Shown one piece after another: positions 14,197 to 27,445 of a stretch of 64,000 bases of DNA. Both the position numbers and the translations under genes were made by a program. Position 1 is the first letter of the stretch, and every line of letters begins with the position of its first letter. The notes under the pieces were generated by a model that saw only the letters and a list, made by a program, of their open reading frames with translations, was not told where the DNA came from and searched no databases. Source of the DNA: Microbispora catharanthi (GTDB taxonomy: Bacteria; Actinomycetota; Actinomycetes; Streptosporangiales; Streptosporangiaceae); contig NZ_VDMA02000022.1 of assembly GCF_006334915.2 (NCBI RefSeq), forward strand, positions 62,001 through 126,000. The letters are read 5' to 3'.

Positions 14197-14946
14197 ATGG
14201 AGTTGGCGGACGCGAGACGGCGCCGGGCGGACAGGGCCCGCCAGGTCGCCGACCTGCTGCGGCGGGAGGTCGTGCACGGCGGTTTCGGCGATGGTCACCT
14301 GCCGCTGGAGTCCGCCCTCGCCCGGGAGTTCGGGACCTCCCGCAACACGATCAGGGAGGCCCTGGACCTGCTGCGTGACGAGGGCCTCATCGAGCGGTGC
14401 CCGGGAGTGGGCACCACGGTGGCCGCGGAGAAGTATCCGCACGGCCTGCACCGGCTGCTCGGCCTCGCCGAGACCCTCCGGGAGCACGGCGAGGTCACCA
14501 ACGAGGTCCGCGCGATGGGGCTGATCCCGCCTCCGGCCGCCGTCCGGGGACGGCTCGGCCTGCCGCACGGCGAGTCCGTCGTCTACGTGGAGCGGCTGCG
14601 CAGGCTCAACGGGCTGCCGCTCTCGCTCGACCTGACCTACCTCGTCCGCGAGGTGGGGGAGCCGCTCTTCGACGCCGATCTCGTCCACAACGACGTGTTC
14701 GTGCTGCTGGAACGGGTCGCCGGCCAGCCGCTCGGCGTGGCGGAGCTGACGATCGAGGCCGTGAACGCCGACGCCCACACCGCGGCCGTCCTCGACGCGC
14801 CGCGCGGTGCGGCGCTGCTGATGGTCGAGCGCCTCACTCACCTGTCCGACGGCCGCCCGGTCGACCTGGAGTTCGTCAGGTTCCGCGGCGACCGCCTCAC
14901 CATGCGTGGCCATCTCTGGAGGAACACCGATGACCCTGGTCAATAG
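14197..14946 (+). CDS. GntR-family regulator with UTRA ligand domain, first gene of the organosulfur island
   Basis: 249 residues. N-terminal winged helix (EFGTSRNTIREALDLLRDEG) followed by a chorismate-lyase-like UTRA domain with VERLRRLNGLPLSLDLTYL. UTRA regulators bind small catabolites. The stop overlaps the ferredoxin start (14930), so the regulator is translated with the pathway genes. No Shine-Dalgarno is evident, in line with a leaderless message. It probably senses a pathway substrate or product. Confidence 0.87.
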   Translation: MELADARRRRADRARQVADLLRREVVHGGFGDGHLPLESALAREFGTSRNTIREALDLLRDEGLIERCPGVGTTVAAEKYPHGLHRLLGLAETLREHGEVTNEVRAMGLIPPPAAVRGRLGLPHGESVVYVERLRRLNGLPLSLDLTYLVREVGEPLFDADLVHNDVFVLLERVAGQPLGVAELTIEAVNADAHTAAVLDAPRGAALLMVERLTHLSDGRPVDLEFVRFRGDRLTMRGHLWRNTDDPGQ

Positions 14947-15157
14947 CCGCGTCGACGTGCCCGTCACGATCGACGAGTCGTTGTGCATCGAGGGCTGCAC
15001 GCTGTGCGTGGACGTGTGCCCGCTCGACTCGCTGGCCATCCACGAGGTCAGCGGCAAGGCCTATATGCACGTGGACGAGTGCTGGTACTGCGGCCCCTGT
15101 GCCGACCGGTGCCCCGCGGACGCGGTCACGGTGAACATCCCCTACCTGCTCCGATAG
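14930..15157 (+). CDS. Two-cluster 4Fe-4S ferredoxin, AprB-like
   Basis: 75 residues from the ATG at 14930, chosen because CTGGAGGA lies just upstream. Two cysteine sets are seen: CIEGCTLCVDVCP and CWYCGPCADRCP, enough for two 4Fe-4S clusters. The size and the tryptophan-containing second motif resemble the N-terminal half of the beta subunit of adenylylsulfate reductase (AprB), here without the long tail. It should pass electrons to or from the AprA-like flavoprotein encoded four genes on. The start overlaps the GntR gene. Confidence 0.85.
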   Translation: MTLVNSRVDVPVTIDESLCIEGCTLCVDVCPLDSLAIHEVSGKAYMHVDECWYCGPCADRCPADAVTVNIPYLLR

Positions 15158-15169
15158 AAGGACACCCCC

Positions 15170-16582
15170 ATGCGTAAGCTCATCGCCGCCGTGGCGCTGC
15201 TGGCCGCGGCCGGGTGCTCCGTGTCCGCCGGCGCCGACGACGGCAGGCAGACGGTCGTCGTCGGATACCAGTCGAAGACCATCAACACGGTGACGGCCGG
15301 GACGCTGCTGCGCGGCCTCGGCTACCTCGAAAAACGCCTCGGCGACAGATACCGGGTCGAGTGGCAGGACTACGACACCGGCGCCCCGATAACCGCCAAG
15401 ATGGTGGCCGGGAAGATCGACATCGGGTCGATGGGCGACTACCCGCTCCTCATCAACGCCTCCCGCACCCAGGGCGTGCCCTCCGCGCGGACCGAGCTCG
15501 TCTCGGTGACCGGCTACAACCTGCGCGGCGGGCTGAACGCGGTCGTCGTGCCCCCGTCGTCGGACGTGGAGACGCTGGCCGACCTGAAGGGGAAGAAGGT
15601 CTCGGCCAGCTCGGGCTCGGCCGGGCACGGCACGCTCGTCCAGGCCCTGGAGCGGGCCGGGCTCGACCCCGCGACGGACGTGGAGGTCGTGAACCAGCAG
15701 CCGCCGGTGGGCGCGTCCGCGCTGCAGTCGGGGAACGTGCAGGGATACGCCCAGTTCGTGGCCTGGCCGGGACTGCTCGTCTTCAAGAACCAGGCCAGGC
15801 TCGTCTACGACGGCTCGGCGCTCGGCGTGCCGACGTTCCACGGCGTCGTCGTCCGGCAGGCGTACGCGAAGGAGCACCCCGACGTGCTCCAGGCGTTCCT
15901 CCAGGCGCAGATCGACGCGACGAACTACCTCCACGAGCATCCCCTGGAGGCGGCCGAGGCGGTCGCCGAGGCCACCGGCCTGCCGCCCGAGGTGGTCTAC
16001 CTCTACAACGGCCGCGACGGCATCGCCTCGTTCGACGTGACCGTGAAGCCGCAACTGCTGGCCGCCCTGCGGCACGACGAGAAGTACCTGAAGATCATCG
16101 GCACCGACTTCACCGACGTCGACGTGACGAAGTTCGCGAACGACTCCTCCATCAGGAAGGCGTACGGCGCCTCCTACGACGCCGGCACCGCGAGCACCGT
16201 CAACGCGGCGCGGATCACCGGGACCGACGAGGCCTGCGGGACCGCCGTGCGCGACCCCGCGAAGGCGGGCGAGCTGTGGCTCGCCGGGGAGGACCGGCTC
16301 CGCCCCGCGGCCACCCCCACCTGCCTGCTGCGCCAGATCGCCGCCGCCACCTCGGCCGGCGGGACCGTACGGGCCGCCTACGTGCCCGACGCGGCCACCG
16401 GCACGCACTGGTTCGCGGACAAGTCGGTCTGGGTGCGCGACCCCTCGGCGGACGAGAACGAGCGGTTCGCGCCCTTCACCACCCGGGACGGCGCGCAGGC
16501 GTACGTGAAGGAGCACCCCCGGGCGCGGATCGTCGGATACGACGAGGCGCTGAAGGCCGCGGCGGGAGGTGCCTCGCGATGA
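15170..16582 (+). CDS. Sulfonate/taurine-type ABC transporter substrate-binding lipoprotein
   Basis: 470 residues, long for SsuA/TauA. Lipobox LLAAAGC with Cys16. The first domain carries the NMT1/SsuA pattern: YQSKTINTVTAGTLLRG, GAPITAKMVAGKIDIGSMGD, then KGKKVSASSGSAGHGTLVQA. An extra C-terminal part of about 130 residues follows the usual fold. Overlaps the permease start by ATGA. Sulfonate-like ligand is inferred from family and from the sulfur genes around it; nitrate- or thiamine-precursor-type ligands are possible in the family. Confidence 0.85.
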   Translation: MRKLIAAVALLAAAGCSVSAGADDGRQTVVVGYQSKTINTVTAGTLLRGLGYLEKRLGDRYRVEWQDYDTGAPITAKMVAGKIDIGSMGDYPLLINASRTQGVPSARTELVSVTGYNLRGGLNAVVVPPSSDVETLADLKGKKVSASSGSAGHGTLVQALERAGLDPATDVEVVNQQPPVGASALQSGNVQGYAQFVAWPGLLVFKNQARLVYDGSALGVPTFHGVVVRQAYAKEHPDVLQAFLQAQIDATNYLHEHPLEAAEAVAEATGLPPEVVYLYNGRDGIASFDVTVKPQLLAALRHDEKYLKIIGTDFTDVDVTKFANDSSIRKAYGASYDAGTASTVNAARITGTDEACGTAVRDPAKAGELWLAGEDRLRPAATPTCLLRQIAAATSAGGTVRAAYVPDAATGTHWFADKSVWVRDPSADENERFAPFTTRDGAQAYVKEHPRARIVGYDEALKAAAGGASR

Positions 16583-17466
16583 GCACTCCGGCGCTGGACG
16601 CGACGCTCGGCCCCGCTGCCCCCGCCGTCGCAGGCGCGGACGCCGTCACGGCGACGGGCCGGACGAGAACGGCGGACGGCCTGCGCAGGTGGGCGGTCAG
16701 ATCGGCCTCCCTGGCGGCCGTCGTCGCGGTGTGGCAGTGGCTGACGACCGCGGACGCCCGGGTCGGACTGCGGTTCGACCGGCTGCCCTCGCCCGCCGAG
16801 GTCGCGGCGGAGTTCGGCCGGCAGCTCGGCACCCGGATCTACTACCTCGACCTGGCCCAGAGCATGATCCGCATCCTCACCGGGTTCGCGCTGGCGGCCG
16901 TGGCCGGCATCGCCCTGGGCGTCCTGGTCGCGCGGTCCCGCTGGGCCGGCGACGTGCTGCTGCCGCCCGTCGAGGTCGTCCGGCCGATCCCGGCCATCGC
17001 CCTCGTCCCGATCGCGATCCTGGTGTTCCCCACCGACGAGCAGGGCATCGTGTTCATCACGTTCGCCGCGGCCTTCTTCCCGATAATGGTGAGCACGCGG
17101 CACGCCGTGCGGGCGCTGCCGACGCTGTGGGAGGACGCGGTCCGCACGATGGGCGGCGGACGCGCGCACGTGCTGTGGAACGTCGTCCTCCCGGGCACGC
17201 TGCCGGGCGTCTTCGGCGGGCTGTCCGTCGGCATGGGCGTCGCCTGGATCTGCGTGATCTCCGCCGAGATGATCTCCGGGGAGTTCGGCGTCGGCTACCG
17301 CACCTGGCACGCCTACACGGTCGTCGACTATCCGGCGGTGCTCGTCGGCATGGCGTCGATCGGCGTGCTCGGCTGGGTCGCCTCGGCCACGATCGAACTG
17401 CTCGGCCGGCGCCTGACCCGGTGGCTTCCCCGTGTCGACGAGGGTGTGGAAGGCGGCGCCCGATGA
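16579..17466 (+). CDS. ABC transporter permease (SsuC/TauC family)
   Basis: 295 residues, about six membrane segments. The coupling EAA loop is read as EDAVRTMGGGRAHVLWNVVLPG. The RSRWAGDVLLPPVEVVRPIP segment is the standard SsuC stretch before the fourth helix. The ATG at 16579 overlaps the binding-protein stop, and the end overlaps the ATPase start, so the three subunits are coupled. Confidence 0.9.
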   Translation: MSTPALDATLGPAAPAVAGADAVTATGRTRTADGLRRWAVRSASLAAVVAVWQWLTTADARVGLRFDRLPSPAEVAAEFGRQLGTRIYYLDLAQSMIRILTGFALAAVAGIALGVLVARSRWAGDVLLPPVEVVRPIPAIALVPIAILVFPTDEQGIVFITFAAAFFPIMVSTRHAVRALPTLWEDAVRTMGGGRAHVLWNVVLPGTLPGVFGGLSVGMGVAWICVISAEMISGEFGVGYRTWHAYTVVDYPAVLVGMASIGVLGWVASATIELLGRRLTRWLPRVDEGVEGGAR

Positions 17467-18224
17467 CCGCGCCCGCGGTGGACGCCGCACGGGCGGACGC
17501 CGGGCTCGCCATCCGGCTGGAGGGCGTGTCCCTCGGTTACGGGCGGCACGCCGTGCTGGAGGACCTGCGCCTCGACATCGCTCCCGGCGAGGTCCTGGTG
17601 ATTGTCGGTCCGTCCGGGTCGGGCAAGTCCACGGTCCTGCGGGCGATCGCGGGACTGCTGGCGCCGCGCGCCGGGCGGGTCCTGGCCGAGGGCGTGCCGG
17701 TCACCGGGCCCTCGACCGACCGCGCGATGGTCTTCCAGGACGACGCGCTGCTGCCCTGGCGCACGGTCCTGCGCAACGTCGAGCTGCCGCTGCGCATCCG
17801 CGGCGTGCCGAGACGGGAGCGCAGGACGGCCGCCGAGAGCTGGATCGCCCGCGTCGGCCTCGCCGGTTGCGAGGACCGGCTGCCCCGGGAGCTGTCCGGC
17901 GGCATGCGGCAGCGGGTGCAGCTCGCCAGGTCCCTGGCGGGCGCGCCGCGTGCCGTGCTCATGGACGAGCCCTTCGGCGCGCTGGACGCGCAGACCCGGG
18001 CCGGGATGCAGCGCCTGCTGCTGGACGTGCTCCGCGACACCCTCGCCACGGTCGTCTTCGTCACCCACGACGTGGACGAGGCGCTGCTGCTCGCCGACCG
18101 GGTCGTCGTGCTCGGGCATCGCGGCGGACACGGCGGCATCGGACGCGTCCTGCGCGTGCCGGACCCGCGCACCCCCGACATCGACCGCGCCGGGCTGCGC
18201 GCCCGCATCATCGAGGAGCTCTGA
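17463..18224 (+). CDS. ABC transporter ATP-binding protein (SsuB/TauB family)
   Basis: 253 residues. Walker A GPSGSGKST at 49-57, Q-loop in MVFQDDALLPWRTV, signature LSGGMRQRVQLARSL, Walker B AVLMDEPFGALDAQ and H-loop VTHDVDEAL. The FQDDALLPW form is typical of sulfonate/nitrate/taurine importers. Overlaps the permease by four bases and abuts the flavoprotein gene with no gap. Confidence 0.92.
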   Translation: MTAPAVDAARADAGLAIRLEGVSLGYGRHAVLEDLRLDIAPGEVLVIVGPSGSGKSTVLRAIAGLLAPRAGRVLAEGVPVTGPSTDRAMVFQDDALLPWRTVLRNVELPLRIRGVPRRERRTAAESWIARVGLAGCEDRLPRELSGGMRQRVQLARSLAGAPRAVLMDEPFGALDAQTRAGMQRLLLDVLRDTLATVVFVTHDVDEALLLADRVVVLGHRGGHGGIGRVLRVPDPRTPDIDRAGLRARIIEEL

Positions 18225-21077
18225 ATGGACATCCCTGCCCCGGCGGACCGCACGCATCTGGAATGCCAGGTCCTGGTGGTCGGCGGCGGCACCGCCGGGA
18301 CCATGGCCGCGATCACCGCCGCCGAGCGCGGCGCCGACGTGATCCTGCTGGAGAAGGCGCACGTACGGCACAGCGGCGCGCTGGCGATGGGCATGGACGG
18401 CGTGAACAACGCGGTCATCCCCGGCAAGGCCACCCCCGAGGACTACGTCGCCGAGATCACCAGGGCCAACGACGGGGTGGTCAACCAGCGCACCGTCTAC
18501 CAGACGGCCACGCGCGGCTACGACATGGTCCGTCGGCTGGAGCGCTACGGCGTGAAGTTCGAGAAGAACGAGCACGGTGAGTACGCGGTGCGCCGGGTCC
18601 ACCGCTCGGGCAGCTACGTCCTGCCCATGCCGGAGGGCAAGGACGTCAAGAAGGTGCTCTATCGCGTGCTGCGCCGCCGCGACATCCGCGAGAGGGTGCG
18701 CATCGAGAACCGGGTGATGCCGGTCCGCGTGCTGACCAGCGAGGGCCGGGCCGTCGGCGTCGCCGGGTTCGACACCCGCTCGGGCGGGTTCGTCACGGTC
18801 TCCGCCGGAGCCGTGATCCTCGCGACCGGTGCGTGCGGGCGTCTGGGCCTGCCCGCGAGCGGCTACCTCTACGGCACGTACGAGAACCCGACCAACGCCG
18901 GCGACGGGTACGCGATGGCCTACCACGCGGGCGCGGAGCTCAGCGGCATCGAGTGCTTCCAGATCAACCCGCTGATCAAGGACTACAACGGCCCGGCCTG
19001 CGCGTACGTCGCCAACCCGTTCGGCGGCTACCAGGTCAACGCCGAGGGGGAGCGGTTCGTCGACTGCGACTACTGGTCGGGCCAGATGATGGCCGAGGTG
19101 GCCGGGGAGATCGCCTCGGCCCGCGGTCCGATCTACCTCAAGGTCAGCCACCTGCCGGACGAGACGCTCACCGCGCTCGAGAACATCCTGCACACCACCG
19201 AACGCCCCACCCGGGGCACCTTCCACGCGGGACGCGGGCACGACTACCGCACCCACGACGTCGAGATGCACATCTCGGAGATCGGCCTGTGCGGCGGCCA
19301 CTCGGCGTCGGGCGTCTGGGTGGACGAGAACGGCGCCACCACGGTCCCCGGCCTGTACGCCGCGGGCGACCTGGCCTGCGTGCCGCACAACTACATGATC
19401 GGGGCGTTCGTGTTCGGCGACCTCGCGGGCGCCCACGCCGCCGAGCACCATCGCACGCCGGACGGCCTGCCGGAGGACCAGATCGCCGACGCGCACGAGC
19501 TGATCTACCGCCCGCTGCGCAACCCCGACGGCCCCCCGCAGCAACAGGTCGAATACAAGCTGCGGCGGTTCGTCAACGACTACGTCGCCCCGCCGAAGAC
19601 CGCCAGGAAGCTGGACATCGCGCTGGAGACGTTCGAGCGGATGCGCGACGAGATCGCGACCATGGGCGCGAGGACCCCGCACGAGCTGATGCGCTGCGCC
19701 GAGGTGACGTTCATCAGGGACTGCGCCGAGATGGCCGCCAGGTCCTCACTGCTCCGCACCGAGAGCAGGTGGGGCCTCTACCACGATCGCGCCGACCTGC
19801 CTCGCCGGGACGACGACGAGTGGCTCTACCACCTCAACCTGCGCAAGAACGCCGCCGGGGCGATGGAGTTCGTCAAGCGCCCGGTCGAGCCCTACCTCGT
19901 GCCCGTCGAGGGCTTCGCCCCCCGCCCGGCCGAGCCCGTCCCGCTCGGCGCGTACGGCACGGCGGGCCCCGCGCGGCGCAGGGCGGGCGGGCGGCTTGCG
20001 GTGGAGGCGATCGGGCGCTCGCCCCGCATCCTCGAACTCCTGCGGCTCGCCGACGCCGAGCCGGCGCTGGACCAGATCACCCCCTACCTGGCGGAGGCCG
20101 ACCCCAAGGTCCGCAGGGCGGCCGTCGCGACGCTGACGGAGACCGCGCCCAGGGGCGTGGAGACCGCGCTGACCCGGGCCCTCGCCGACCCGCACGGCAC
20201 GGTGCGGCGCGCGGCCGCCACCGGCCTGCGCGAGCTCGTCGAGGTGCTGCCCGCGACCGCCGAGTTCGGCGCCTCGCTCCGCGCCGTCGCCGGTTACACG
20301 GAAGCGGGCCAGGGTGGAGTGGGCCAGGGTGGAGTGGGCCAGGGTGGAGTGGGCCAGGGTGGAGTGGGCCAGGGTGGAGTGGGCCAGGGTGCAGCGGGCC
20401 AGGGTGGCGTGGGGGACCCCGTCGTCCGCGCGGCCGTCCTGGACGTCCTGCGGGCGCTGCACCTGGGTGACGCCGCGTTGTTCGAGGCGGCGCTCGCCGA
20501 CGCCGACACCCGGGTGCGGATCGAGGCGGTCAGGGGCCTGGTCGCGCTCGACGACGCGGAGCGGGTGGCGCTCGCCGCCGGCGACCGGGACCGCGAGGTA
20601 CGCGTCTGGGCGGCCAGAGGGCTCGGCGTCATCGGCCTGCCGGGCGGCGCCCCCGCCGTCGCGCGGCTCGCCGCCGACCCCGACCCGCTCGTCCGGGCGG
20701 CGGCCCTGGAGGCGTTCTCCGGGCTCGGCCAGGCTCTCCACCGGGAGCCGGGCTTCGCGGAGACGGCCGTACGGGGCCTGGCGGATCAGGCCTGGCAGGT
20801 GAGGGTGGGCGCGGCGCGGGGACTGGCCGCCGCCGGCCCGGCCCTCGCGGTGGAACCGCTGGTGGCGGCGCTGGCCGACCCGCACCTCGACGTGCGCAAG
20901 GCCGCGGTCCTCTCGCTGTCCGGGTGGGCGGCGCGGCCGGAGGTCGCCGCGGCCCTGCACGTCGCTCTCGGCGACTCCGACGCTGACGTCCGGGCCTACG
21001 CCCGCAGGGCGCTGGACGCCGCACGAGCCGAGTCGGCCGAAGGTTCGAGCGCGGTCCCGGCGGGGGCCCGGGGATGA
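18225..21077 (+). CDS. AprA-like FAD flavoprotein fused to a C-terminal HEAT-repeat domain
   Basis: 950 residues. Residues about 12-600 are a fumarate reductase/AprA-type flavoprotein: dinucleotide motif GGGTAG at 20-25, then GDGYAMAYHAGAELSGIECF and NPLIKDYNGPACAYVANPFG, which are characteristic of the adenylylsulfate reductase alpha branch rather than of succinate dehydrogenase. The FAD-domain end reads GLYAAGDLACVPHNYMIGAF. Residues about 610-940 are tandem HEAT/PBS-lyase-like helices (VRRAAVATL, VRIEAVRGL, VRVGAARGLAA). A glycine/glutamine repeat interrupts them at about 695-729. The ferredoxin upstream is the likely electron partner. The reaction is unknown; oxidation or reduction of an imported organosulfur compound is my inference. 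Confidence 0.82.
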   Translation: MDIPAPADRTHLECQVLVVGGGTAGTMAAITAAERGADVILLEKAHVRHSGALAMGMDGVNNAVIPGKATPEDYVAEITRANDGVVNQRTVYQTATRGYDMVRRLERYGVKFEKNEHGEYAVRRVHRSGSYVLPMPEGKDVKKVLYRVLRRRDIRERVRIENRVMPVRVLTSEGRAVGVAGFDTRSGGFVTVSAGAVILATGACGRLGLPASGYLYGTYENPTNAGDGYAMAYHAGAELSGIECFQINPLIKDYNGPACAYVANPFGGYQVNAEGERFVDCDYWSGQMMAEVAGEIASARGPIYLKVSHLPDETLTALENILHTTERPTRGTFHAGRGHDYRTHDVEMHISEIGLCGGHSASGVWVDENGATTVPGLYAAGDLACVPHNYMIGAFVFGDLAGAHAAEHHRTPDGLPEDQIADAHELIYRPLRNPDGPPQQQVEYKLRRFVNDYVAPPKTARKLDIALETFERMRDEIATMGARTPHELMRCAEVTFIRDCAEMAARSSLLRTESRWGLYHDRADLPRRDDDEWLYHLNLRKNAAGAMEFVKRPVEPYLVPVEGFAPRPAEPVPLGAYGTAGPARRRAGGRLAVEAIGRSPRILELLRLADAEPALDQITPYLAEADPKVRRAAVATLTETAPRGVETALTRALADPHGTVRRAAATGLRELVEVLPATAEFGASLRAVAGYTEAGQGGVGQGGVGQGGVGQGGVGQGGVGQGAAGQGGVGDPVVRAAVLDVLRALHLGDAALFEAALADADTRVRIEAVRGLVALDDAERVALAAGDRDREVRVWAARGLGVIGLPGGAPAVARLAADPDPLVRAAALEAFSGLGQALHREPGFAETAVRGLADQAWQVRVGAARGLAAAGPALAVEPLVAALADPHLDVRKAAVLSLSGWAARPEVAAALHVALGDSDADVRAYARRALDAARAESAEGSSAVPAGARG
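20306..20410 (+). repeat. In-frame 15-bp tandem repeat inside the HEAT domain, 7 copies
   Basis: Unit GGGCCAGGGTGGAGT, five perfect copies then two altered ones. It encodes a run of Gly-Gln-Gly-Gly-Val units. It is placed between HEAT helices, so copy-number change would lengthen a loop without a frameshift. Confidence 0.95.
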
Positions 21078-21250
21078 GCGCGCCCGGCCGTCTTCCGTCC
21101 GGCGCCTCGTCGTTCGCCGCGGGCGAGCCAGGCACGCCCCCGGCTCCCTTCCCCGGGGACACCCACTGGTACGACCTGCCGGACGACGACGCGGCGCCGG
21201 AGGAGGACGAGGGCGGCGTGTTCGGCTGGTTGAGCCGGTGGCTCAGGTGA
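21074..21250 (+). CDS. 58-residue acidic, proline-rich protein of the organosulfur island
   Basis: ATG overlaps the flavoprotein stop by ATGA. 58 residues with no cysteine: a Ser/Gly/Pro-rich first half, DTHWYDLPDDDAAPEEDEG in the middle, and an amphipathic tail VFGWLSRWLR. I do not recognise the family. Tight coupling suggests a small accessory subunit of the flavoprotein/ferredoxin complex, possibly docking through its tryptophan-rich tail. A lanthipeptide precursor for the next gene is unlikely, because it lacks cysteine. Confidence 0.6.
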   Translation: MSAPGRLPSGASSFAAGEPGTPPAPFPGDTHWYDLPDDDAAPEEDEGGVFGWLSRWLR

Positions 21251-21292
21251 CGGTGAACCCGCTGAACAGGACTGAAAGGCTCGGGCGAATAG

Positions 21293-21323
21293 TTGCTATT
21301 ACCTACCGGATTTGTGGGATAGT
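21293..21323 (+). promoter_or_regulatory. Internal promoter before the LanC-like gene
   Basis: TTGCTA (21293-21298) and GATAGT (21318-21323) with a 19-base spacer. The -10 box ends 6 bases before the ATG at 21330, so a leaderless transcript is likely. The spacer contains ATTACCTACCGG, similar to the palindrome before the GntR gene. Confidence 0.4.
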
Positions 21324-21329
21324 GCATCC

Positions 21330-22646
21330 ATGGGCCCGGACCCGTTCCGCTCATCCGGTGAGCGCGCAGAGACCCCGCTGACGGCCGCCATCATGGCGGG
21401 ACGGTGGATACGTACGGCCGCCGTCGACGACGAGAGCGGCAGACGATGGCGGGCCAACCCCGACCCGCACGGCCGGTCGGCGACGCCCGGCGAGCCCGCG
21501 TCCCTTCATTCTGGGGCGGCGGGGATCGTGCTGTTCTTCCTGGAGCTCGCCGCCGGCACCGGCCATGAGGCGTACCTGGAGGACGCCCGCGCCGGCGCCC
21601 GCCACCTCGCGGCGACCTGGCGGCGGCAGGCCGACGTGTCGCTCCACCACGGCCTCGCCGGTGTCGTCCTCGCGCTGACCGAGGCCGGCTGGGCGCTCGG
21701 CGAGGAGCGTTTCGAGGGCGCTGCGCTCGCGGCGGCCGACAGGATCGTCAGGAGCGCCCGCGCGTTCGACGACGGCGGCATCGGCTGGTCGGGAGATGTC
21801 ACGCTGCGCGGTGACGGCGGCGTCGTCCTGGGGCTGCTGCGCGCCGCCGCGGCGCTCGGGGTGCCGGCCTACGAGGAGATGGCCGTCGAGGCGGGACGGC
21901 GCATCGCGCGGCTGACCGCCCCCCGCGAGCGGCCCGCGGCGTGCCCCGCCCTGTCCGCGGAGGCGGCCCCGCCCGGCTTCCTGGCCGGGACGGCCGGGAC
22001 GGCCTTCCTCCTCGCCCGGCTGTACGGCGCGACGGGCGAGGAGGCGTTCCTCGACGCGGCACGCCGCGGCGCGGGCCTCGTCCGGGCCGCCGGCGTCCTG
22101 ACGGGGGAGAGCGCGACGGTCGGCGACCACCTGGGCTACTGCTCGGGCTCCGCCGGGATCGCGCGCATGTTCTACGAGCTGTATCGGGTGAGCGGCGACG
22201 GCGGCGACCTGGAGTGGGTGAGGCGGCTCGCCAGGGGTGTCAGGGAGTCGGGCGCGCCCTTCCGGCAGACCGCGGGGCTGTGGAACGTCGCCTGCCAATG
22301 CTGCGGCACCGCCGGGCTGATCGAGCTGTACGTGGGGTTGTGGGCGGCGACGGGGGAGCAGGAGCACCTGGAGTTCGCCCGCAGGCTCGCCGACCACCTG
22401 ATCGGCCGGGCGACCGGCTACGACGGCAGGGGATACCGCTGGTATCAGGCATACCGGCGGCACCGCCCCGGAGAGGTGTCGGCCGACACCGGCTACCTGA
22501 CCGGCGCGGCGGGGATCGGGGCGGCCCTGCTGCATTTGGACGCGGCGGGACAGGCGGACCGGCCGCGCCGCGTGATCCTGCTGCCCGACAACCCCTTCCC
22601 GCCCATTCCCATGCCGGCCGTCGCCCTGCGGAGGCCGGCCGGCTGA
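21330..22646 (+). CDS. LanC-like cyclase/glutathione-transferase-fold protein with a Cys-Cys-Gly zinc motif
   Basis: 438 residues from ATG 21330. The seven-hairpin LanC barrel pattern is seen as repeated G-x-x-G elements: LHSGAAGI, LHHGLAGV, FLAGTAGTA, YCSGSAGIA, CCGTAGLIEL and YLTGAAGIG. Zinc ligands would be Cys271 (YCSG) and Cys324-Cys325 (CCG). Classical LanC enzymes have Cys-His-Gly at the second site; Cys-Cys-Gly gives an all-cysteine zinc site like that of ProcM-type synthetases. No precursor peptide or dehydratase lies nearby. Thiol addition to a small unsaturated substrate is a possible role. Confidence 0.75.
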   Translation: MGPDPFRSSGERAETPLTAAIMAGRWIRTAAVDDESGRRWRANPDPHGRSATPGEPASLHSGAAGIVLFFLELAAGTGHEAYLEDARAGARHLAATWRRQADVSLHHGLAGVVLALTEAGWALGEERFEGAALAAADRIVRSARAFDDGGIGWSGDVTLRGDGGVVLGLLRAAAALGVPAYEEMAVEAGRRIARLTAPRERPAACPALSAEAAPPGFLAGTAGTAFLLARLYGATGEEAFLDAARRGAGLVRAAGVLTGESATVGDHLGYCSGSAGIARMFYELYRVSGDGGDLEWVRRLARGVRESGAPFRQTAGLWNVACQCCGTAGLIELYVGLWAATGEQEHLEFARRLADHLIGRATGYDGRGYRWYQAYRRHRPGEVSADTGYLTGAAGIGAALLHLDAAGQADRPRRVILLPDNPFPPIPMPAVALRRPAG

Positions 22647-22667
22647 CAGCGGCAGGTGAGGAGGCAC

Positions 22668-23804
22668 ATGACTGCCATGAAGGACGGCCTTGGAGCACGG
22701 TGTGCGGCACCGGAAACGGAAACCCCGCCCGGCATCCGCAAGCCGCTGCCGCCCCGCCTGTTCGCCGTGCACGGCACGAACGCGGAGACCCGCTGGGAGG
22801 CGCTGCGGGGCGAGGACTACCTGACGCCGGACGGCCTCTTCTTCGTCCGCAACCACACGGCGACACCGCTGATCGACGCGGCCGCCTGGCGGCTCACGCT
22901 GTGGGGCGACGCCCTGCGCGGCGGGCCGGTCGCGCTCACCTATCGTGACCTCCTCGGCATGCCGGCCGAGACCGTGACCGCGTTCATCGAGTGCGCGGGC
23001 AACGGGCGCCGCCTGTACGGCGAGCAGCAGAACCAGGAGGTGTCGGGCACCCCCTGGCGGCTGGGCGCGGTGGGGGTGGCGCGCTGGCGGGGCGTGCGCC
23101 TCGCGACGCTCCTGGAGAGGGCGGGGATGAGCGACAGGGCCGTCGTGCTGATGCCGCGCGGGCTCGACGCCGACTACGTCGAGGCGGGGGAGAACCTGGG
23201 GAGGGTGCGGCGCCCGCTTCCCGTGGCCAAGGCGCTGGACGACGTGCTGGTGGCCTACGAGATGAACGGGCGGCCGCTGCCGCCCGACCACGGCCACCCG
23301 GCGCGTCTGGTGGTGCCGGGATGGGTGGGCGCCGCCTCGATCAAGTGGCTGGGGGACATCGAGGTGTCGGCGGAGCCGCTGGAGTCGCCGTGGAGCACAC
23401 GGCTGTACCGGATGCACGGCCCCGGCCATCCGCCCGGGGGCGGCCCGCCGCTGACGCGGGTGGGGGTGAAGAGCGCCTTCGAACTGCCCTGGCCGGCCCG
23501 TCTCGAGGCGGGGCGCGAGCACCTGCTGCACGGCCGCTCCTGGTCCGGCAACGGACAGGTGGTCCGGGTCGACGTCAGCGACGACGAGGGCGTGTCCTGG
23601 CGGCCCGCGCGCCTGCACGGCGAACGCCACCCGCGCGGCTGGGTCCGCTGGACCTTCCCCTGGACCCCGCGCGAGGCGGGGAACCTCCGGCTGCTCGTCC
23701 GGGCCGCCGACGAGACGGGCGCCGTTCAGCCCGGCCGTGCGGCCTGCAACGCCCTCGGCTACGGCTTCGACGCGGTGGTGCGCCATCCCGTCGTCGTCAC
23801 CTGA
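22668..23804 (+). CDS. Sulfite oxidase-family molybdopterin enzyme, cytoplasmic
   Basis: 378 residues from the ATG at 22668 behind GAGGAGG. The molybdenum-binding cysteine is Cys109 in FIECAGNGRR, and the domain end carries the dimerisation fold (GVKSAFELPWPARLEAG, VDVSDDEGVSWRPA). No signal peptide and no heme b5 domain, so it probably works in the cytoplasm with an unknown acceptor. In this island it would convert sulfite released from the organosulfur substrate to sulfate. It ends the first transcription unit. Confidence 0.87.
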   Translation: MTAMKDGLGARCAAPETETPPGIRKPLPPRLFAVHGTNAETRWEALRGEDYLTPDGLFFVRNHTATPLIDAAAWRLTLWGDALRGGPVALTYRDLLGMPAETVTAFIECAGNGRRLYGEQQNQEVSGTPWRLGAVGVARWRGVRLATLLERAGMSDRAVVLMPRGLDADYVEAGENLGRVRRPLPVAKALDDVLVAYEMNGRPLPPDHGHPARLVVPGWVGAASIKWLGDIEVSAEPLESPWSTRLYRMHGPGHPPGGGPPLTRVGVKSAFELPWPARLEAGREHLLHGRSWSGNGQVVRVDVSDDEGVSWRPARLHGERHPRGWVRWTFPWTPREAGNLRLLVRAADETGAVQPGRAACNALGYGFDAVVRHPVVVT

Positions 23805-23815
23805 CCCAGTTGGAT

Positions 23816-23869
23816 TTTCCTGTAAAGCTAGTAGGAAATATTGACTTTCTCGGCCGGTGATCGTACGTT
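23816..23869 (+). promoter_or_regulatory. Strong promoter of the leader peptide, with inverted repeat at the -35 box
   Basis: TTGACT (23841-23846), 17-base spacer, TACGTT (23864-23869). The predicted transcription start falls at or one base before the leader ATG at 23877. TTTCCT (23816-23821) and AGGAAA (23833-23838) form an inverted repeat with an 11-base spacer immediately upstream of the -35 box and may bind a regulator. Confidence 0.6.
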
Positions 23870-23876
23870 CGGTGGT

Positions 23877-23951
23877 ATGAGCCAGGGCGTTCGTCTGACC
23901 CGGCGTTCGAGCGTGGACTACGGCCACGTCGCCAGCGCGCAGTGTCGTTGA
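23877..23951 (+). CDS. Leader peptide (24 residues) of the actinobacterial sulfur-gene type
   Basis: A 24-codon ORF on a probably leaderless message. It begins MSQGVRLTRR and ends VDYGHVASAQCR. Short peptides with an arginine-rich start, a V-D-[LY] core and a S-A-x-C-R end occur upstream of sulfur assimilation and sulfonate genes in streptomycetes and relatives, where the terminal Cys codon is thought to report cysteinyl-tRNA supply. That identification is from memory of the family. The next gene is a flavin reductase 190 bp downstream, with a hairpin between. Confidence 0.7.
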   Translation: MSQGVRLTRRSSVDYGHVASAQCR

Positions 23952-23981
23952 TTGTGAATCTTCCGTCGTCTTCGTGCCGAT

Positions 23982-24012
23982 GAGGGGCCGGCCGCGGCAC
24001 GCGGCCGCCCTC
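23982..24012 (+). promoter_or_regulatory. Hairpin after the leader peptide, candidate attenuator
   Basis: GAGGGGCCGGCCGC (23982-23995) pairs with GCGGCCGCCCTC (24001-24012) with one small bulge and a five-base loop, 30 bases after the leader stop. There is no U-tract, so Rho-dependent or translational attenuation is more likely than intrinsic termination. Confidence 0.4.
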
Positions 24013-24141
24013 CTCGCGAGCCGTGCGTGACCGCGTCATGCCCGGTCCCGCCTCCATCCGAATCCCTGATCCCGCGTGTCGTGGTGCCTGCGGCGGGCGG
24101 GATCGACCTTGTGAGCAGCTGCGACCTTCCGGAGGTTTGCC

Positions 24142-24675
24142 ATGACGGAGACTCTGCTCGGCCCCGGCCTCGACGCCGACGACTACAAGCGCGCGCTGGA
24201 CGCCGACGGCTACAAGCGTGCCCTCGCGGTGCACGCGGCGGGGGTCGTCGTGATCACCGCGCGGAGCGGGGGAGTGCCGGTGGGGTTGACCGCGACCTCG
24301 TTCTCCTCGGTCAGCCTGGACCCGCCCCTCGTCTCCTTCTACGTGGACCGGTCGTCCACCACCTGGCCGTCGTTGCGCGCGGCGGACCACTTCGCCGTCA
24401 ACGTCCTGGCCAGCGACCAGGCCGATCTCGCCGCCCGGTTCGCCCGCAAGGGCACCGACCGCTTCGCCGAGCCCACCCGGTGGCGTCCGGGCCCGCTCGG
24501 AGCGCCCCTGCTCGAGGACGTCTCCGCGCACCTGATCTGCCTGCCCTACGAGCGGGTCGGCGTGGGCGACCACGTCCTCGTCGTGGGGCTGGTCACCCAG
24601 GCCGAGGTGCGCGGGCCGGGGCGTCCGCTGCTTTACCACCAGGGCCGCTTCGGCCGGTTCATCGCCCACCCGTGA
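24142..24675 (+). CDS. Flavin reductase-like protein (FMN-binding split barrel)
   Basis: 177 residues. The flavin reductase domain is clear: AAGVVVITARSGGVPVGLTATSFSS is the FMN-binding start in pieces such as GLTATSFSSVSLDPPLVSF, followed by FAVNVLASDQADLAARFA. Such proteins deliver reduced FMN to sulfonate or alkane-sulfonate monooxygenases; no such monooxygenase lies within the window downstream. A GGAGG precedes the ATG. The N-terminus carries a 9-residue tandem duplication. It is the first structural gene under the leader peptide. Confidence 0.87.
   Translation: MTETLLGPGLDADDYKRALDADGYKRALAVHAAGVVVITARSGGVPVGLTATSFSSVSLDPPLVSFYVDRSSTTWPSLRAADHFAVNVLASDQADLAARFARKGTDRFAEPTRWRPGPLGAPLLEDVSAHLICLPYERVGVGDHVLVVGLVTQAEVRGPGRPLLYHQGRFGRFIAHP
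24169..24222 (+). repeat. 27-bp tandem duplication in the flavin reductase gene
   Basis: Two adjacent 27-base units (24169-24195 and 24196-24222), differing at 4 positions, encoding LDADDYKRA then LDADGYKRA. The substitutions keep the residues nearly identical, so the duplication is tolerated and probably not brand new. Confidence 0.85.
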
Positions 24676-24725
24676 TCCCGCTTCCGCTTCGCACGATTAC
24701 CCGTTCCGATCTGGAGGACCGTCTG

Positions 24726-24794
24726 TTGACCACTCGTACGCTCTTCGACACGGACACAGGACACGCCGCGCGGCACGAGGCGGTGGCCTCGTGA
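24726..24794 (+). CDS. 22-residue ORF coupled to the FMN reductase gene
   Basis: TTG start with GGAGG ten bases upstream; product begins MTTRTLFDTDTG and ends HEAVAS. Its TGA overlaps the GTG of the following FMN reductase (GTGA). There is no better ribosome site for that downstream GTG, so the small ORF probably delivers ribosomes to it. It could be a translated coupling peptide or the stub of a lost gene. Confidence 0.45.
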   Translation: MTTRTLFDTDTGHAARHEAVAS

Positions 24795-25315
24795 GCTCTC
24801 TCGTGGTGCTGGTCGGCAATCCGCGCGGCGGTTCCCGGACCCACCTCGCGGCCGTGGCGGCGGCCGAGGCGGTGGGGCGCCGCATCGGGTACGAGGCGCC
24901 GCCCGAGGTCGTGGACCTGTCCGGGATCGGGCCGCACCTGTTCACCCCCGGGCCTTCGCCGACCGTGGAGGTGGCGCTGGAACTGGTCGCCGGAGCGCAG
25001 GTGCTCCTGGTGGCCAGCCCTACTTACAAGGCCACCTACACCGGCCTGCTCAAGGCGTTCCTCGACCGCCTCCCCGGCGGCGCGCTGGCCGGAACGGTGG
25101 CCCTGCCGCTGCTGGTCATGGGCTCCCCCCGGCACGCGCTGGCCGTCGAGCTGCACCTGCGCCCCGTGCTGGTCGAACTGGGCGCCCTCGTGCCCACCCC
25201 CGGCCTGGCGCTGCTCGAGGCCGAGATCCCCGACCTCGACCGCATCCTCGCCGACTGGACGGATCGCGTCGCCGCCCAGGTGGCCGCGGCGCTGGAGAGG
25301 AGGGCGACCGCCTGA
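24791..25315 (+). CDS. NADPH-dependent FMN reductase (SsuE/MsuE-like flavodoxin fold)
   Basis: 174 residues. The FMN phosphate loop region is LVGNPRGGSRTHLA and the flavin ring loop is ASPTYKATYTGLLKAFLDRLPGG, the standard SsuE pattern. GTG start, overlapping the 22-residue ORF; the end overlaps the GST gene by one base. SsuE-type reductases supply FMNH2 for desulfonation, which matches the island and its leader peptide. Confidence 0.87.
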   Translation: MSSLVVLVGNPRGGSRTHLAAVAAAEAVGRRIGYEAPPEVVDLSGIGPHLFTPGPSPTVEVALELVAGAQVLLVASPTYKATYTGLLKAFLDRLPGGALAGTVALPLLVMGSPRHALAVELHLRPVLVELGALVPTPGLALLEAEIPDLDRILADWTDRVAAQVAAALERRATA

Positions 25316-26295
25316 TGACCACGCACGCTCCCGCGTACGCGAGCCCCGCCGACGTCGCGGCCTTCGGCCCGTACGGGCCGGGCAGGACCGACCGGCCTGG
25401 ACCCCTCTATCCGTTCCGGGGCCGGATCACCGCCGGCGGTTCCGGCGGCCACCCCGCCGAGCCCGGCCGCTACCACCTGTACGTCTCGTACGTGTGCCCG
25501 TGGGCGCAGCGGGTGGCCGTCGTGCGCGACCTGGCCGGGCTGAAGGACGTCGTCTCGCTGTCGTACGTCGACGACGAGCGCGACGCGCGCGGCTGGGCGT
25601 TCCGCGAGCGGCGCGGTCCCGACCCGGTCAACGGCTTCACGCTCCTCGCCGAGGCGTACGACGCCACCGAGCCCGGCTACCCCGGCCACATCTCGGTGCC
25701 GGTGCTGTGGGACCGGCGGACGAACCGGATCGTGAGCAACGACTACCCCGACATCCCGGTCGACCTCGGCACCCGGTTCAGTCAGTGGGCCGACTCGGGC
25801 GCGGACCTCTATCCGGAGGACCTGCGCGACGAGATCGAGGCCCTGGACGAGGAGATCGCCCGTGACCTCGGCCAGGGCGTGCACCTGGTGGCCAGGGCCG
25901 CCACGCAGGAGGAGTACGAGCGGCGGCGCGGCGAAGTGCTCGCCGCACTGGATCGCCTCGACGCCCGCCTGGCCGACCGGCGGTACCTGTTCGGGGACCG
26001 CCTCACCGAGTCCGACGTGCAGCTCTGGGTGGTCCTGGTCAGGTACGACCTGCTGCACAACCCGCTCGCCGGGATCGGCGAACGGCCGCTGACCGACTAT
26101 CCCCACCTCTGGCCGTACGCACGCGACCTCTACCGGCTCCCGGCGTTCCGGGAGACGACCGACTTCGCCGCCTTCCGGCTCACCGCCCGGCCCGCCTACC
26201 TGGGCGACGGGCCGGTGCGGATCGCGGTCGAGCCCCGGGAGGCCGACTGGGACGAGCCGCACGGGCGCGGGGCGCTGACCGGACGGCACCGGTGA
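25315..26295 (+). CDS. Xi-class glutathione S-transferase (glutathionyl/mycothiyl-hydroquinone reductase-like)
   Basis: 326 residues. The Xi-class active-site motif CPWAQR has Cys61; further family segments are NDYPDIPVDLGTRF and the C-terminal LTESDVQLWVVLVRYD. Xi enzymes reduce S-thiolated hydroquinones using a catalytic cysteine. Actinomycetes use mycothiol rather than glutathione, so the true thiol is uncertain. It is last in the sulfur-regulated unit and followed by a hairpin. Confidence 0.87.
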   Translation: MTTHAPAYASPADVAAFGPYGPGRTDRPGPLYPFRGRITAGGSGGHPAEPGRYHLYVSYVCPWAQRVAVVRDLAGLKDVVSLSYVDDERDARGWAFRERRGPDPVNGFTLLAEAYDATEPGYPGHISVPVLWDRRTNRIVSNDYPDIPVDLGTRFSQWADSGADLYPEDLRDEIEALDEEIARDLGQGVHLVARAATQEEYERRRGEVLAALDRLDARLADRRYLFGDRLTESDVQLWVVLVRYDLLHNPLAGIGERPLTDYPHLWPYARDLYRLPAFRETTDFAAFRLTARPAYLGDGPVRIAVEPREADWDEPHGRGALTGRHR

Positions 26296-26383: not shown

Positions 26384-27445
26384 ATGCAGGCGACCCTGAC
26401 CGTGACTCCCGCGCAGCTTCCGGAGGTGCTGCTGCACGTCGCCGTCGTGCGCCCGGTGTTCCTGTGGGGTGCGCCGGGCATCGGCAAGAGCTCGCTCGTC
26501 CGCTCGTTCGCCGACTCCCTCGGCCTCGAGTGCGTGACTCTCCTCGGCACGCAACTGGCTCCGGAGGACCTCATCGGCGTCCCGCAGATCGTCGGGGACC
26601 GCAGCCGGTTCGCCCCGCCGGAGACGATCGCGAGGCAGGAGCCCTACTGCCTGTTCCTGGACGAGCTCAACGCCTCCTCCCCGGAGGTCCAGAAGGCGTT
26701 CTACTCGCTGATCCTCGAACGGCGCATCGGCACGTACGAGCTGCCGGCGGGGTCGGTGGTGATCGGCGCGGGAAACCGGGCGACCGACAACGCGCTCGCA
26801 AGGCCCATGCCGTCCGCGCTGGTCAACCGCATGATCCATGTCCACCTCCGGGCCTCGGCCGACGACTGGCTGAGCTGGGCGGCCACGAGCGGCATCCACC
26901 CCTGGATCGTCGACTACCTCGTCCAGCGCCCCGACCACCTGTGGAGCGCGCCGCCCAAGACGGAGGAGCCGTTCTCCACGCCGCGCGGCTGGCACATGCT
27001 GTCCGACGCCATGCACTCCTACGGTGAGCGGCTGGACGACGAGACCCTGGGACTGCTGGCCTACGGCACGCTGTCCGCCGCGCACGCCTCGGCCTTCCGG
27101 GCGTACGTGAAGACGGTGCGGCACGCGTACGACCTCGACGCCGTGATCAAGGGGGACGCGGGGTGGCCGCGCCGGCCCGAGGACCGCGACCTGCTGTACT
27201 TCCTGTCCGAGACCTTCCGGGCCCGGCTGGTCAAGGAGCTGCCGCAGTCGAAGGAGCACGCCTCGCCCGCCGGCCGGCAGCTCGCCTTCCGGGCCAAGAA
27301 CCTGCTCGTCGAGCTGGCGGGGGTCTCGCTCGAATGCGCGCAGCTCGTCATCGCGGCGGGCGACGACGGTGCGCCGGTGCTGCCGTCGTGGTTCCTGGTC
27401 GAGGTCGGCCGCGACCTGCCGCGCCTGGCCGCGGCCCGCGGCTGA
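26384..27445 (+). CDS. MoxR-type AAA+ ATPase
   Basis: 353 residues. Walker A GAPGIGKSS at 29-37, Walker B region CLFLDELNASSPEVQKAFYS, and a sensor segment VVIGAGNRATDNALARPMPS. MoxR ATPases work with vWA-domain partners as chaperones that insert metals or remodel enzymes, and the next gene encodes such a partner. The stop codon begins a tandem array that bridges to it. Confidence 0.87.
   Translation: MQATLTVTPAQLPEVLLHVAVVRPVFLWGAPGIGKSSLVRSFADSLGLECVTLLGTQLAPEDLIGVPQIVGDRSRFAPPETIARQEPYCLFLDELNASSPEVQKAFYSLILERRIGTYELPAGSVVIGAGNRATDNALARPMPSALVNRMIHVHLRASADDWLSWAATSGIHPWIVDYLVQRPDHLWSAPPKTEEPFSTPRGWHMLSDAMHSYGERLDDETLGLLAYGTLSAAHASAFRAYVKTVRHAYDLDAVIKGDAGWPRRPEDRDLLYFLSETFRARLVKELPQSKEHASPAGRQLAFRAKNLLVELAGVSLECAQLVIAAGDDGAPVLPSWFLVEVGRDLPRLAAARG

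What the first reader, a model, noticed from the sequence alone, without database searches (positions are those of the whole stretch)
14197..26295. Organosulfur island built round an AprBA-like pair, a LanC-like protein and a sulfite oxidase
Twelve coupled genes combine an SsuABC/TauABC-type importer, a dicluster ferredoxin and AprA-like flavoprotein (a pair that in sulfate reducers handles APS/sulfite), a LanC-like protein, a sulfite oxidase, two flavin reductases and a Xi GST. No Ssu or Tau monooxygenase is present, so carbon-sulfur bond cleavage may be carried out by the flavoprotein/ferredoxin pair. Motifs are seen in sequence; the pathway is inference. I do not know a described pathway with this set.
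Basis: partly seen in the sequence, partly recalled or inferred. Interest (0 to 1): 0.78.

Follow-up and report, generated by a model that had tools for sequence, protein, structure and literature searches.

The report
Uncharacterised sulfite-type flavoenzyme in organosulfur island
This stretch joins a widely conserved but apparently undescribed import-and-redox cassette, whose main enzyme resembles the enzymes that release sulfite from activated sulfate, to a block of sulfur-linked genes that includes a free-standing LanC-like protein, and it may help a soil bacterium take sulfur out of organic molecules.

Summary
All twelve genes exist where reported. They are two units side by side. Unit A (14197-21077: GntR regulator, dicluster ferredoxin, importer, flavoprotein fused to HEAT repeats) is a real cassette: full order in 66 of 69 actinobacterial loci; it recurs in cyanobacteria and proteobacteria with HEAT as a separate gene. 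Its flavoprotein falls on the APS/PAPS-reductase side, away from SdhA/NadB (100/100), yet AprA Arg265 is replaced by an invariant Leu and Trp234 by Tyr, while Asn74 and His398 remain. Unit B (p58, LanC-like, sulfite oxidase, two flavin reductases, GST) is lineage-specific; relatives place it with SsuABC, an NtaA-type monooxygenase, a YeiH-type exporter or a sulfotransferase. In two genomes of another genus, sulfotransferase, LanC, TauD, SsuABC-like genes, Rrf2 and unit A share about 16 kb. The organosulfur reading thus gains support. Ten full-text searches, seven aimed at the cassette or LanC, found no account of it. By-products: a conserved small-peptide family (p58), a LanC family tied to sulfur genes, and a NosL-like domain on the binding protein of relatives.

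The parts
14197..14946 (+). GntR/UTRA transcriptional regulator (unit A)
   Evidence: UTRA 114 bits, GntR 53.7 bits; found upstream of the flavoprotein in 68 of 69 loci
14930..15157 (+). 2x[4Fe-4S] ferredoxin, AprB-like electron carrier (unit A); ORF opens at 14906, start at 14930 by alignment
   Evidence: Fer4 families; aligned with 7 relatives from other taxa, 8 Cys and the Trp of CWYC kept in 8 of 8; CWYC of the A. caldus relative aligns with CWEC of AprB 3gyx_B
15170..16582 (+). substrate-binding protein (lipoprotein by eye), SsuA-like domain plus C-terminal extension that is NosL-like in relatives (unit A)
   Evidence: TIGR01728 SsuA_fam 145.5 bits, under cut-off 163.5; of 5 C-terminal stretches tested PF05573 hits 4 (28.2, 23.8, 23.3, 17 bits; cut-off 24), not the window's own
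16579..17466 (+). ABC permease, Ssu/Tau/Ntr type (unit A)
   Evidence: PF00528 77.4 bits; NCBIfam Ntr/Ssu/Tau models all under cut-off
17463..18224 (+). ABC ATPase, Ssu/Tau/Ntr type (unit A)
   Evidence: PF00005 109.6 bits; NF008421 taurine ATPase 229.8 bits, under cut-off 357
18225..21077 (+). FAD flavoprotein of the APS/PAPS-reductase side (residues 1-562) fused to HEAT repeats (about 563-950) (unit A)
   Evidence: NF010374 1559.9 bits; best PDB match 8a8o_A PAPS reductase alpha; tree; HEAT is a separate gene in 16 of 17 annotated plasmid cassettes
20306..20413 (+). 15-bp tandem repeat, 7.2 copies, inside the HEAT part
21074..21250 (+). p58, small protein with the core PGDTHWYDLPDDDAAPEE
   Evidence: same core stand-alone or, in two loci, as N-terminal tail of SsuC-type permeases; dN/dS about 0.15 over 19 codons, 16 related stand-alone copies
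21272..21274 (.). junction at which 1295 bp with a YeiH-type gene, present in close relatives, are absent (loss inferred)
   Evidence: blastn against L144; no YeiH hit in the whole window; YeiH-type by PF03601 177.5 bits, TIGR00698 90.7 under cut-off 232.6
21312..22646 (+). free-standing LanC-like protein (unit B); TTG start uncertain
   Evidence: PF05147 70 bits; CxG and QCCG motifs align with 8car_A; matches at E 1e-20 or better in 104 of 250 family genomes
22656..23804 (+). sulfite oxidase family molybdoenzyme (unit B)
   Evidence: PF00174 172.8 and PF03404 41.4 bits; SoxC, SorA, SorT models all under cut-off
24142..24675 (+). flavin reductase (unit B)
   Evidence: PF01613 140.3 bits
24791..25315 (+). 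SsuE/MsuE-like FMN reductase (unit B)
   Evidence: PF03358 90.3 bits; TIGR03567 90.5 bits, under cut-off 164
25315..26295 (+). glutathione-transferase fold protein (unit B); CPWA motif
   Evidence: PF13410 50.6 bits; Xi class from recalled motif only

Best explanation
The window holds two neighbouring sulfur units. Unit A is an import-and-redox cassette. The SsuA-type binding protein and its permease and ATPase bring in a small sulfo-compound; the dicluster ferredoxin, docked as AprB docks on AprA, feeds electrons through its conserved Trp to FAD; the reduced FAD N5 attacks the sulfo sulfur and releases sulfite. The HEAT domain is a scaffold. The substrate is not APS or PAPS. Unit B (LanC-like, sulfite oxidase, flavin reductases, GST, p58) is the remnant of an SsuABC/NtaA-monooxygenase module: its flavin reductases serve monooxygenases encoded elsewhere and its sulfite oxidase disposes of sulfite. 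Shown: gene content, conservation, sequence family, residue swaps, co-location. Inferred: substrate, direction of electrons, sulfite as product, complex formation, all roles in unit B.
For: Cassette order in 66 of 69 loci and across phyla. Tree split {flavoprotein rows, AprA, MtPAPSR} | {two SdhA, NadB, an Sdh-like own-genome protein} 100/100; the next NCBIfam model after the two for this family is an adenylyl-sulfate reductase alpha model, 278.2 bits. Nearest PDB chain MtPAPSR alpha, 287.9 bits, for which N5 attack on sulfur is proposed (PMC10322725, section 9 read). AprA Asn74 and His398 counterparts N61 and H359 invariant in the 14 sequences aligned; Arg265 to Leu250 and Trp234 to Tyr219, also invariant (roles from PMC2211403, passages). 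CWYC Trp kept. YeiH or TauE/SafE beside the cassette in 4 of 17 annotated plasmid stretches; LLM oxidoreductase, 3-mercaptopropionate dioxygenase and rhodanese in Paraburkholderia; TauD, Rrf2 and sulfonate ABC in Sinorhizobium, and the same TauD (55% identity) and Rrf2 (40%) types with SsuABC-like genes before unit A in two actinobacteria. FdxA plus ferredoxin-NADP reductase beside it in Methylobacterium fits reductive flow.
Against: No substrate evidence at all. SsuA/NrtA-type binding proteins also carry non-sulfur compounds (recalled). 8 of 17 annotated plasmid stretches show no sulfur gene outside the cassette. Loss of Arg265 and Trp234 could mean the sulfo chemistry itself is gone. By score the ferredoxin is not specially AprB-like: AprB gives 28.5 bits, below a dozen other ferredoxin models, and polyferredoxins beat AprB in the PDB. 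The family's own NCBIfam models (NF010374, NF006131, both over cut-off) are named fumarate reductase/succinate dehydrogenase. In the tree AprA and MtPAPSR sit on a long branch that is unresolved among the flavoprotein rows. Few Nocardia and Mycobacterium loci carry homologues of the window's unit B genes; other sulfur genes were not sought there. Ferredoxin-NADP reductase appears in 1 of 17 plasmid stretches.
Confidence: 0.42

Rival explanations
1. The flavoprotein/ferredoxin pair is a dehydrogenase or reductase of the fumarate-reductase superfamily that acts on the carbon skeleton of an imported compound, perhaps not even a sulfur one; sulfur neighbours are secondary.
For: Arg265 and Trp234 of AprA are replaced; the pocket motifs (NPL, DYWSGQMM, VHxxGxYVLPMP) are family-specific; NrtA/SsuA-type importers are broad (recalled); 8 of 17 annotated plasmid stretches lack other sulfur genes in view.
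Against: Tree places it with AprA/PAPSR, not with SdhA/NadB; the QFHPT His of Sdh/NadB is Asn248 here; repeated co-location with sulfur genes in distant taxa.
Confidence: 0.3
2. It is an APS or PAPS reductase for sulfate assimilation, a bacterial counterpart of MtPAPSR.
For: Closest solved structure is MtPAPSR; same alpha/dicluster-ferredoxin make-up.
Against: AprA Arg265, thought to contact the nucleotide phosphate, is Leu in 14 of 14; the MtPAPSR residues Lys120/Arg121/Ser122 align with an invariant His126 and two variable positions; the genome has two PF01507 proteins over cut-off (CysH/CysD superfamily); an importer in the operon does not fit APS (inference).
Confidence: 0.1
3. The pair runs backwards and consumes sulfite made by monooxygenases nearby, passing electrons to the ferredoxin.
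For: Sulfite handling genes around it (SO in the window; YeiH-type, TauE/SafE in relatives).
Against: Its own importer is in the cassette in 66 of 69 loci, so an imported compound is the likelier substrate; a ferredoxin-NADP reductase beside one copy suggests the other direction.
Confidence: 0.1
4. Unit B is an unrelated passenger; only unit A is a system (not exclusive of the above).
For: LanC, p58, SO and GST follow the flavoprotein in 1 of 63 loci; LanC has its own distribution (104 of 250) and is not within 11 kb of the flavoprotein in 24 of 36 genomes with both.
Against: LanC lies within 11 kb of the flavoprotein in two other genera (G236; G087 and G112; 3 of 22) in different gene orders, with TauD and SsuABC-like genes between them in G087 and G112.
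Confidence: 0.3

Closest known systems
PAPS reductase MtPAPSR (8a8o, Methanothermococcus thermolithotrophicus)
   Same: FAD alpha subunit of the fumarate-reductase family with a small 2x[4Fe-4S] beta subunit; best PDB match (203.4 bits single sequence, 287.9 bits profile).
   Different: PAPS-specific residues not kept, Arg of the AprA Arg265 position lost, HEAT domain added, importer in the operon, and PF01507 proteins also present in the genome.
Dissimilatory APS reductase AprBA
   Same: Same side of the tree, Asn74 and His398 positions, Trp of the CWxC motif in the ferredoxin (PMC2211403 passages).
   Different: TIGR02061 131.5 bits against 641.75; TIGR02060 28.5 against 135.65; Arg265 to Leu, Trp234 to Tyr.
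SsuABC/SsuD-E and TauABC/TauD organosulfonate uptake
   Same: Importer type, flavin reductases, TauD or LLM monooxygenases nearby in relatives.
   Different: No monooxygenase in this island; binding protein has an extra C-terminal domain and falls under the SsuA cut-off.
Lanthionine synthetases (LanC domain; 8car_A, LanL/LanM/LanKC models)
   Same: LanC family, below the LanL, LanM and LanKC cut-offs; CxG/QCCG motifs. That 8car is a class III synthetase is recalled.
   Different: Free-standing, no kinase or lyase domain, no Cys in the neighbouring 58-aa peptide; relatives sit beside sulfotransferase, SulP-type, YeiH-type, SsuABC genes.
Sulfite oxidase / sulfite dehydrogenase (SoxC, SorA, SorT)
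   Same: Molybdopterin and dimerisation domains.
   Different: Under all three equivalog cut-offs; no signal peptide seen by eye.

Membership tests
Dissimilatory APS reductase (AprBA) | AprA and AprB model scores over curated cut-off | tested here: not met
   131.5 vs 641.75 and 28.5 vs 135.65 bits
Dissimilatory APS reductase (AprBA) | Active-site Asn74, Trp234, Arg265, His398 | tested here: not met
   Asn and His kept (N61; H359 placed through MtPAPSR), Trp to Tyr219, Arg to Leu250, all invariant in the 14 aligned
Dissimilatory APS reductase (AprBA) | Electron-transfer Trp beside cluster I in the beta subunit | tested here: met
   CWYC of the A. caldus relative's ferredoxin aligns with CWEC of 3gyx_B; Trp invariant in 8 of 8 including the window. 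That this Trp is Trp-B48 of A. fulgidus is recalled
Dissimilatory APS reductase (AprBA) | Groups with AprA rather than Sdh/NadB | tested here: met
   split 100/100 with long branches, 20 rows, partial AprA and partial E. coli SdhA, no FrdA
MtPAPSR-type PAPS reductase | Lys120, Arg121, Ser122 for the 3'-phosphate | tested here: not met
   aligned to invariant His126 and variable 127, 128; residues named in PMC10322725
MtPAPSR-type PAPS reductase | PAPS turnover | not testable with these tools
   needs purified protein
Fumarate reductase / succinate dehydrogenase flavoprotein | His of the QFHPT motif | tested here: not met
   Asn248, invariant in the 14 aligned; that this His is catalytic is recalled
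Fumarate reductase / succinate dehydrogenase flavoprotein | Frd/Sdh B, C, D subunits next to it | tested here: not met
   none among the window genes scanned or listed in 17 annotated plasmid stretches, whose gene table is incomplete
NF010374 / PRK13800 HEAT flavoprotein family | score over curated cut-off | tested here: met
   1559.9 vs 1196 bits
SsuA aliphatic sulfonate binding proteins | TIGR01728 cut-off | tested here: not met
   145.5 vs 163.5 bits
Lanthipeptide synthetase | dehydratase/kinase-lyase domain plus precursor peptide with Cys | tested here: not met
   no domain over cut-off but PF05147; p58 has no Cys
LanC-like cyclase domain | LanC family with zinc-ligand Cys motifs | tested here: met
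   PF05147 70 bits; CxG and QCCG aligned with 8car_A; that these bind zinc is recalled
Sulfite oxidase family | molybdopterin and dimerisation domains | tested here: met
   172.8 and 41.4 bits
Sulfite oxidase family | sulfite as substrate | not testable with these tools
   needs assay

The most novel reading that the evidence does not exclude
A cross-phylum, oxygen-independent desulfonation enzyme: an APS-reductase-related FAD/[4Fe-4S] complex with a HEAT scaffold and its own importer that reductively strips sulfite from a non-nucleotide organosulfur compound in aerobic bacteria, in contrast to SsuD, TauD and NtaA-type oxygenases; with a LanC-like protein as a recurrent new partner of organosulfur genes.
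Probability: 0.25. Interest if true: 0.85.

Novelty: new variant of a known kind. Interest (0 to 1): 0.6.

Why it matters
The flavoprotein is annotated fumarate reductase/succinate dehydrogenase in all 17 annotated plasmid stretches opened and in its NCBIfam model, which the tree and the lost His speak against. If it cleaves sulfo-compounds it would add a reductive route to a field described in terms of oxygenases (recalled), in soil actinobacteria, rhizobia, Burkholderiales and cyanobacteria. The cassette is compact (ferredoxin, three importer genes, flavoprotein-HEAT), so ligand screening of the binding protein would make the question directly testable. The LanC link offers a lead for orphan LanC proteins.

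Tried and rejected
Structure of the flavoprotein: AlphaFold2 on 16 close sequences gave mean pLDDT 47.6, so no fold search was run. p58 as a lanthipeptide precursor: rejected, no Cys, and the conserved core also sits on two SsuC-type permeases. The flavoprotein as the only sulfate-reduction enzyme: weakened by two PF01507 proteins in the genome. A first tree held three own-genome rows taken from wrong frames (L083, L085, L087); they were dropped, and a cut E. coli FrdA row was also dropped, so no FrdA is in the tree. Promoter and terminator scan: nothing found.

LanC enrichment (36 of 60 LanC loci against 2 of 20 control stretches) is partly circular: the marker proteins were chosen from LanC loci, the loci are related, all 8 sulfite oxidase hits are in the window's genus, and I picked 60 of about 127 matches listed. 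Only markers within 9 kb of LanC count, while a control stretch counts anything in its 18 kb. For linkage, where a genome has two LanC copies I took the copy on the flavoprotein's contig if there was one.

Literature: ten full-text searches were run. Seven were aimed at the cassette or LanC (15, 43, 44, 45, 81, 82, 103). Searches found no paper; one search listed one paper with the word PRK13800 (PMC8401276, on fungi, not opened); one search listed one (PMC11059613, not opened); one search matched 44 papers, 10 listed, two opened. The library is open-access PMC only. Seen: PMC10322725 passages and the whole of section 9; PMC2211403 passages; PMC8557817 and PMC7661421 passages, in which fumarate reductase is not mentioned; other papers in listings only.
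Full report
What is there. The twelve genes are real. The window is 71% G+C, and the closest named relative found with the same block is Microbispora sp. H11081 (L001, 95% identity in the flavoprotein). The window lies on contig C14 of a 9.25 Mb genome. The ferredoxin ORF opens at 14906, but by alignment with relatives its start is 14930.

Two units, not one. Of 69 loci with at least 5.8 kb upstream, 66 carry GntR-Fd-SBP-permease-ATPase-flavoprotein in full order; the exceptions are L014 and L026 (GntR-Fd-flavoprotein, no importer) and L024 (rearranged). Of 63 loci with at least 7 kb downstream, LanC, p58, SO and GST occur in 1 and each flavin reductase in 2. Clustering of 1264 ORFs found no downstream cluster in more than 20 of the 80 loci. 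So unit A is old and stable, and unit B beside it is local to the window's genus.

Unit A across phyla. In the plasmid collection 51 records hold the flavoprotein. I opened 18 of 51; 17 were annotated (one search had no annotation). Ferredoxin: 17 of 17. HEAT protein: a separate gene in 16 of 17, and fused, judged by length, in Tsukamurella. Complete importer trio in view: 14 of 17 (not L163, L166, L167). DUF971/GBBH-like or Mrp/NBP35 gene: 12 of 17. Fusion in actinobacteria and separation elsewhere argue that HEAT and flavoprotein form one complex (inference). Other sulfur genes in view: 9 of 17, namely YeiH or sulfate exporter plus TauE/SafE in three cyanobacteria (L170, L173, L248), sulfonate binding proteins in Nostoc (L163), TauE/SafE in Aquabacterium (L174), a TSUP transporter in Acinetobacter (L165), an NtaA/DmoA monooxygenase and SsuA in Cupriavidus (L164), TauD, Rrf2, sulfate and sulfonate ABC genes in Sinorhizobium (L176), LLM oxidoreductase, 3-mercaptopropionate dioxygenase and rhodanese in Paraburkholderia (L249). 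None in 8 of 17.

The flavoprotein. Its best PDB match is the alpha subunit of the PAPS reductase of Methanothermococcus (203.4 bits; AprA 104.7; SdhA 87.7), and a profile of 14 relatives gives that chain 287.9 bits. The two NCBIfam models over cut-off (NF010374, NF006131) bear the fumarate reductase name; the next is an adenylyl-sulfate reductase alpha model (278.2 bits, under its cut-off). A 20-row tree splits flavoprotein rows, AprA and MtPAPSR from two SdhA, NadB and an Sdh-like own-genome protein at 100/100, with long branches, partial AprA and E. coli SdhA rows, and AprA/MtPAPSR unresolved among the flavoprotein rows. Residues: AprA Asn74, Trp234, Arg265 and His398 are predicted to hold the sulfate group, and Arg265 may also touch the phosphate (PMC2211403, passages). 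Here they are Asn61, Tyr219, Leu250 and His359, each invariant in the 14 aligned; His359 is placed through MtPAPSR because the printed AprA alignment lacks that stretch. The QFHPT His of Sdh/NadB is Asn248. The ferredoxin keeps the Trp of AprB's CWxC motif, though by score it resembles polyferredoxins more than AprB. Thus it looks built on the AprBA plan but fails the AprBA, PAPSR and Sdh/Frd membership tests.

The importer. The binding protein is SsuA-like (145.5 bits, cut-off 163.5) with a C-terminal extension shared by most of the 11 proteins aligned (shorter in Tsukamurella and Methylocystis). Five C-terminal stretches were tested with Pfam: NosL hits four relatives (28.2 bits, over cut-off 24; 23.8; 23.3; 17), not the window's. 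Two shorter sulfonate binding proteins of Nostoc gave no NosL hit.

Unit B. In L129 the order is LanC, SsuA, SsuB, SsuC, an NtaA-type monooxygenase, FMN reductase, flavin reductase (the L154 homologue of that monooxygenase scores 588.5 bits to NtaA/DmoA). The core of p58 is the N-terminal tail of that SsuC. In 6 of 8 genus loci with the near-identical LanC a YeiH-type gene lies between p58 and LanC, on the opposite strand; the window lacks it, with a clean 1295-bp difference to L144. In 60 LanC loci: sulfotransferase 17, flavin reductases 13 and 13, LLM 9, YeiH-type 8, SO 8, SulP-type 5, SsuA2 4, against 0, 0 and 0, 1, 0, 1, 0, 0 in 20 control stretches; any marker 36 of 60 against 2 of 20, 25 of 48 outside the genus. 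This test is partly circular (see Tried and rejected).

Linkage of A and B. Of 250 family genomes, 53 have the flavoprotein (E 1e-150; 52 over cut-off), 104 have LanC, 36 have both. LanC starts within 11 kb of the flavoprotein in 9 of 14 genus genomes and in 3 of 22 others (G236, G087, G112). In G087 and G112 one run of about 16 kb reads unknown protein c4, sulfotransferase, LanC, TauD, SsuABC-like genes, Rrf2, then unit A. The TauD next to the cassette in Sinorhizobium is 55% identical over 281 residues to that of G087, and the Rrf2 40% over 80. This is the strongest evidence for a shared organosulfur role.

How it probably works. Inferred: import of a small sulfo-compound, electrons from the ferredoxin through Trp to FAD, N5 attack on sulfur as proposed for MtPAPSR (PMC10322725 section 9), release of sulfite, which is assimilated, exported (YeiH-type, TauE/SafE in relatives) or oxidised. 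A ferredoxin-NADP reductase and FdxA beside one copy fit the reductive direction. The genome also has an SsuD-like gene and NtaA-type genes that could use the flavin reductases of unit B.

Novelty. Seven searches aimed at the cassette or LanC, of ten run, found no account of it (listed in Tried and rejected); the library does not hold most subscription papers. The domain families are all known; the combination and the subfamily look undescribed. I rate it a new variant of a known kind.

Noticed in passing
window 21074-21250; also L194, L195, L196: A small-protein family with the core PGDxHWYDLPDDDAAPEE: stand-alone next to LanC, stand-alone at a second locus (G000:C7:41714 and two relatives), and as N-terminal tail of two SsuC-type permeases; dN/dS about 0.15 over 19 codons from related pairs. 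The DNA pattern was found in 5 of 394 class genomes, all of the window's genus.
   Followed up: partly
L123 (own genome C4:204173-205468): A second LanC-like gene, 66% identical, stands beside a SulP-type transporter and a gene that looks ArsR-like by eye.
   Followed up: partly
window 21272-21274: 1295 bp with a YeiH-type exporter gene that close relatives keep are absent.
   Followed up: yes
window 20306-20413: 15-bp tandem repeat, 7.2 copies, in the HEAT part of the flavoprotein.
   Followed up: no
window 16070-16582 and relatives L164, L165, L168, L170: NosL-like domain (PF05573) at the C-terminus of the cassette's binding protein in four relatives, weakly in three of them; not detected in the window's own protein.
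   Followed up: partly
G000:C14:19723-22172 (L197), about 40 kb upstream of the window: Two adjacent stretches matching the NtaA-type monooxygenase family on the same contig, one over cut-off.
   Followed up: no
L128, L129, L252 and others: A sulfotransferase and an unknown protein (c4, no Pfam match at E 1e-10) form a conserved pair next to LanC in several genera.
   Followed up: partly
window 26384-29309: MoxR-type AAA ATPase and DUF2201 metallopeptidase/VWA-like pair follow the island; homologues follow it in L144 and at least the second gene in L145.
   Followed up: no
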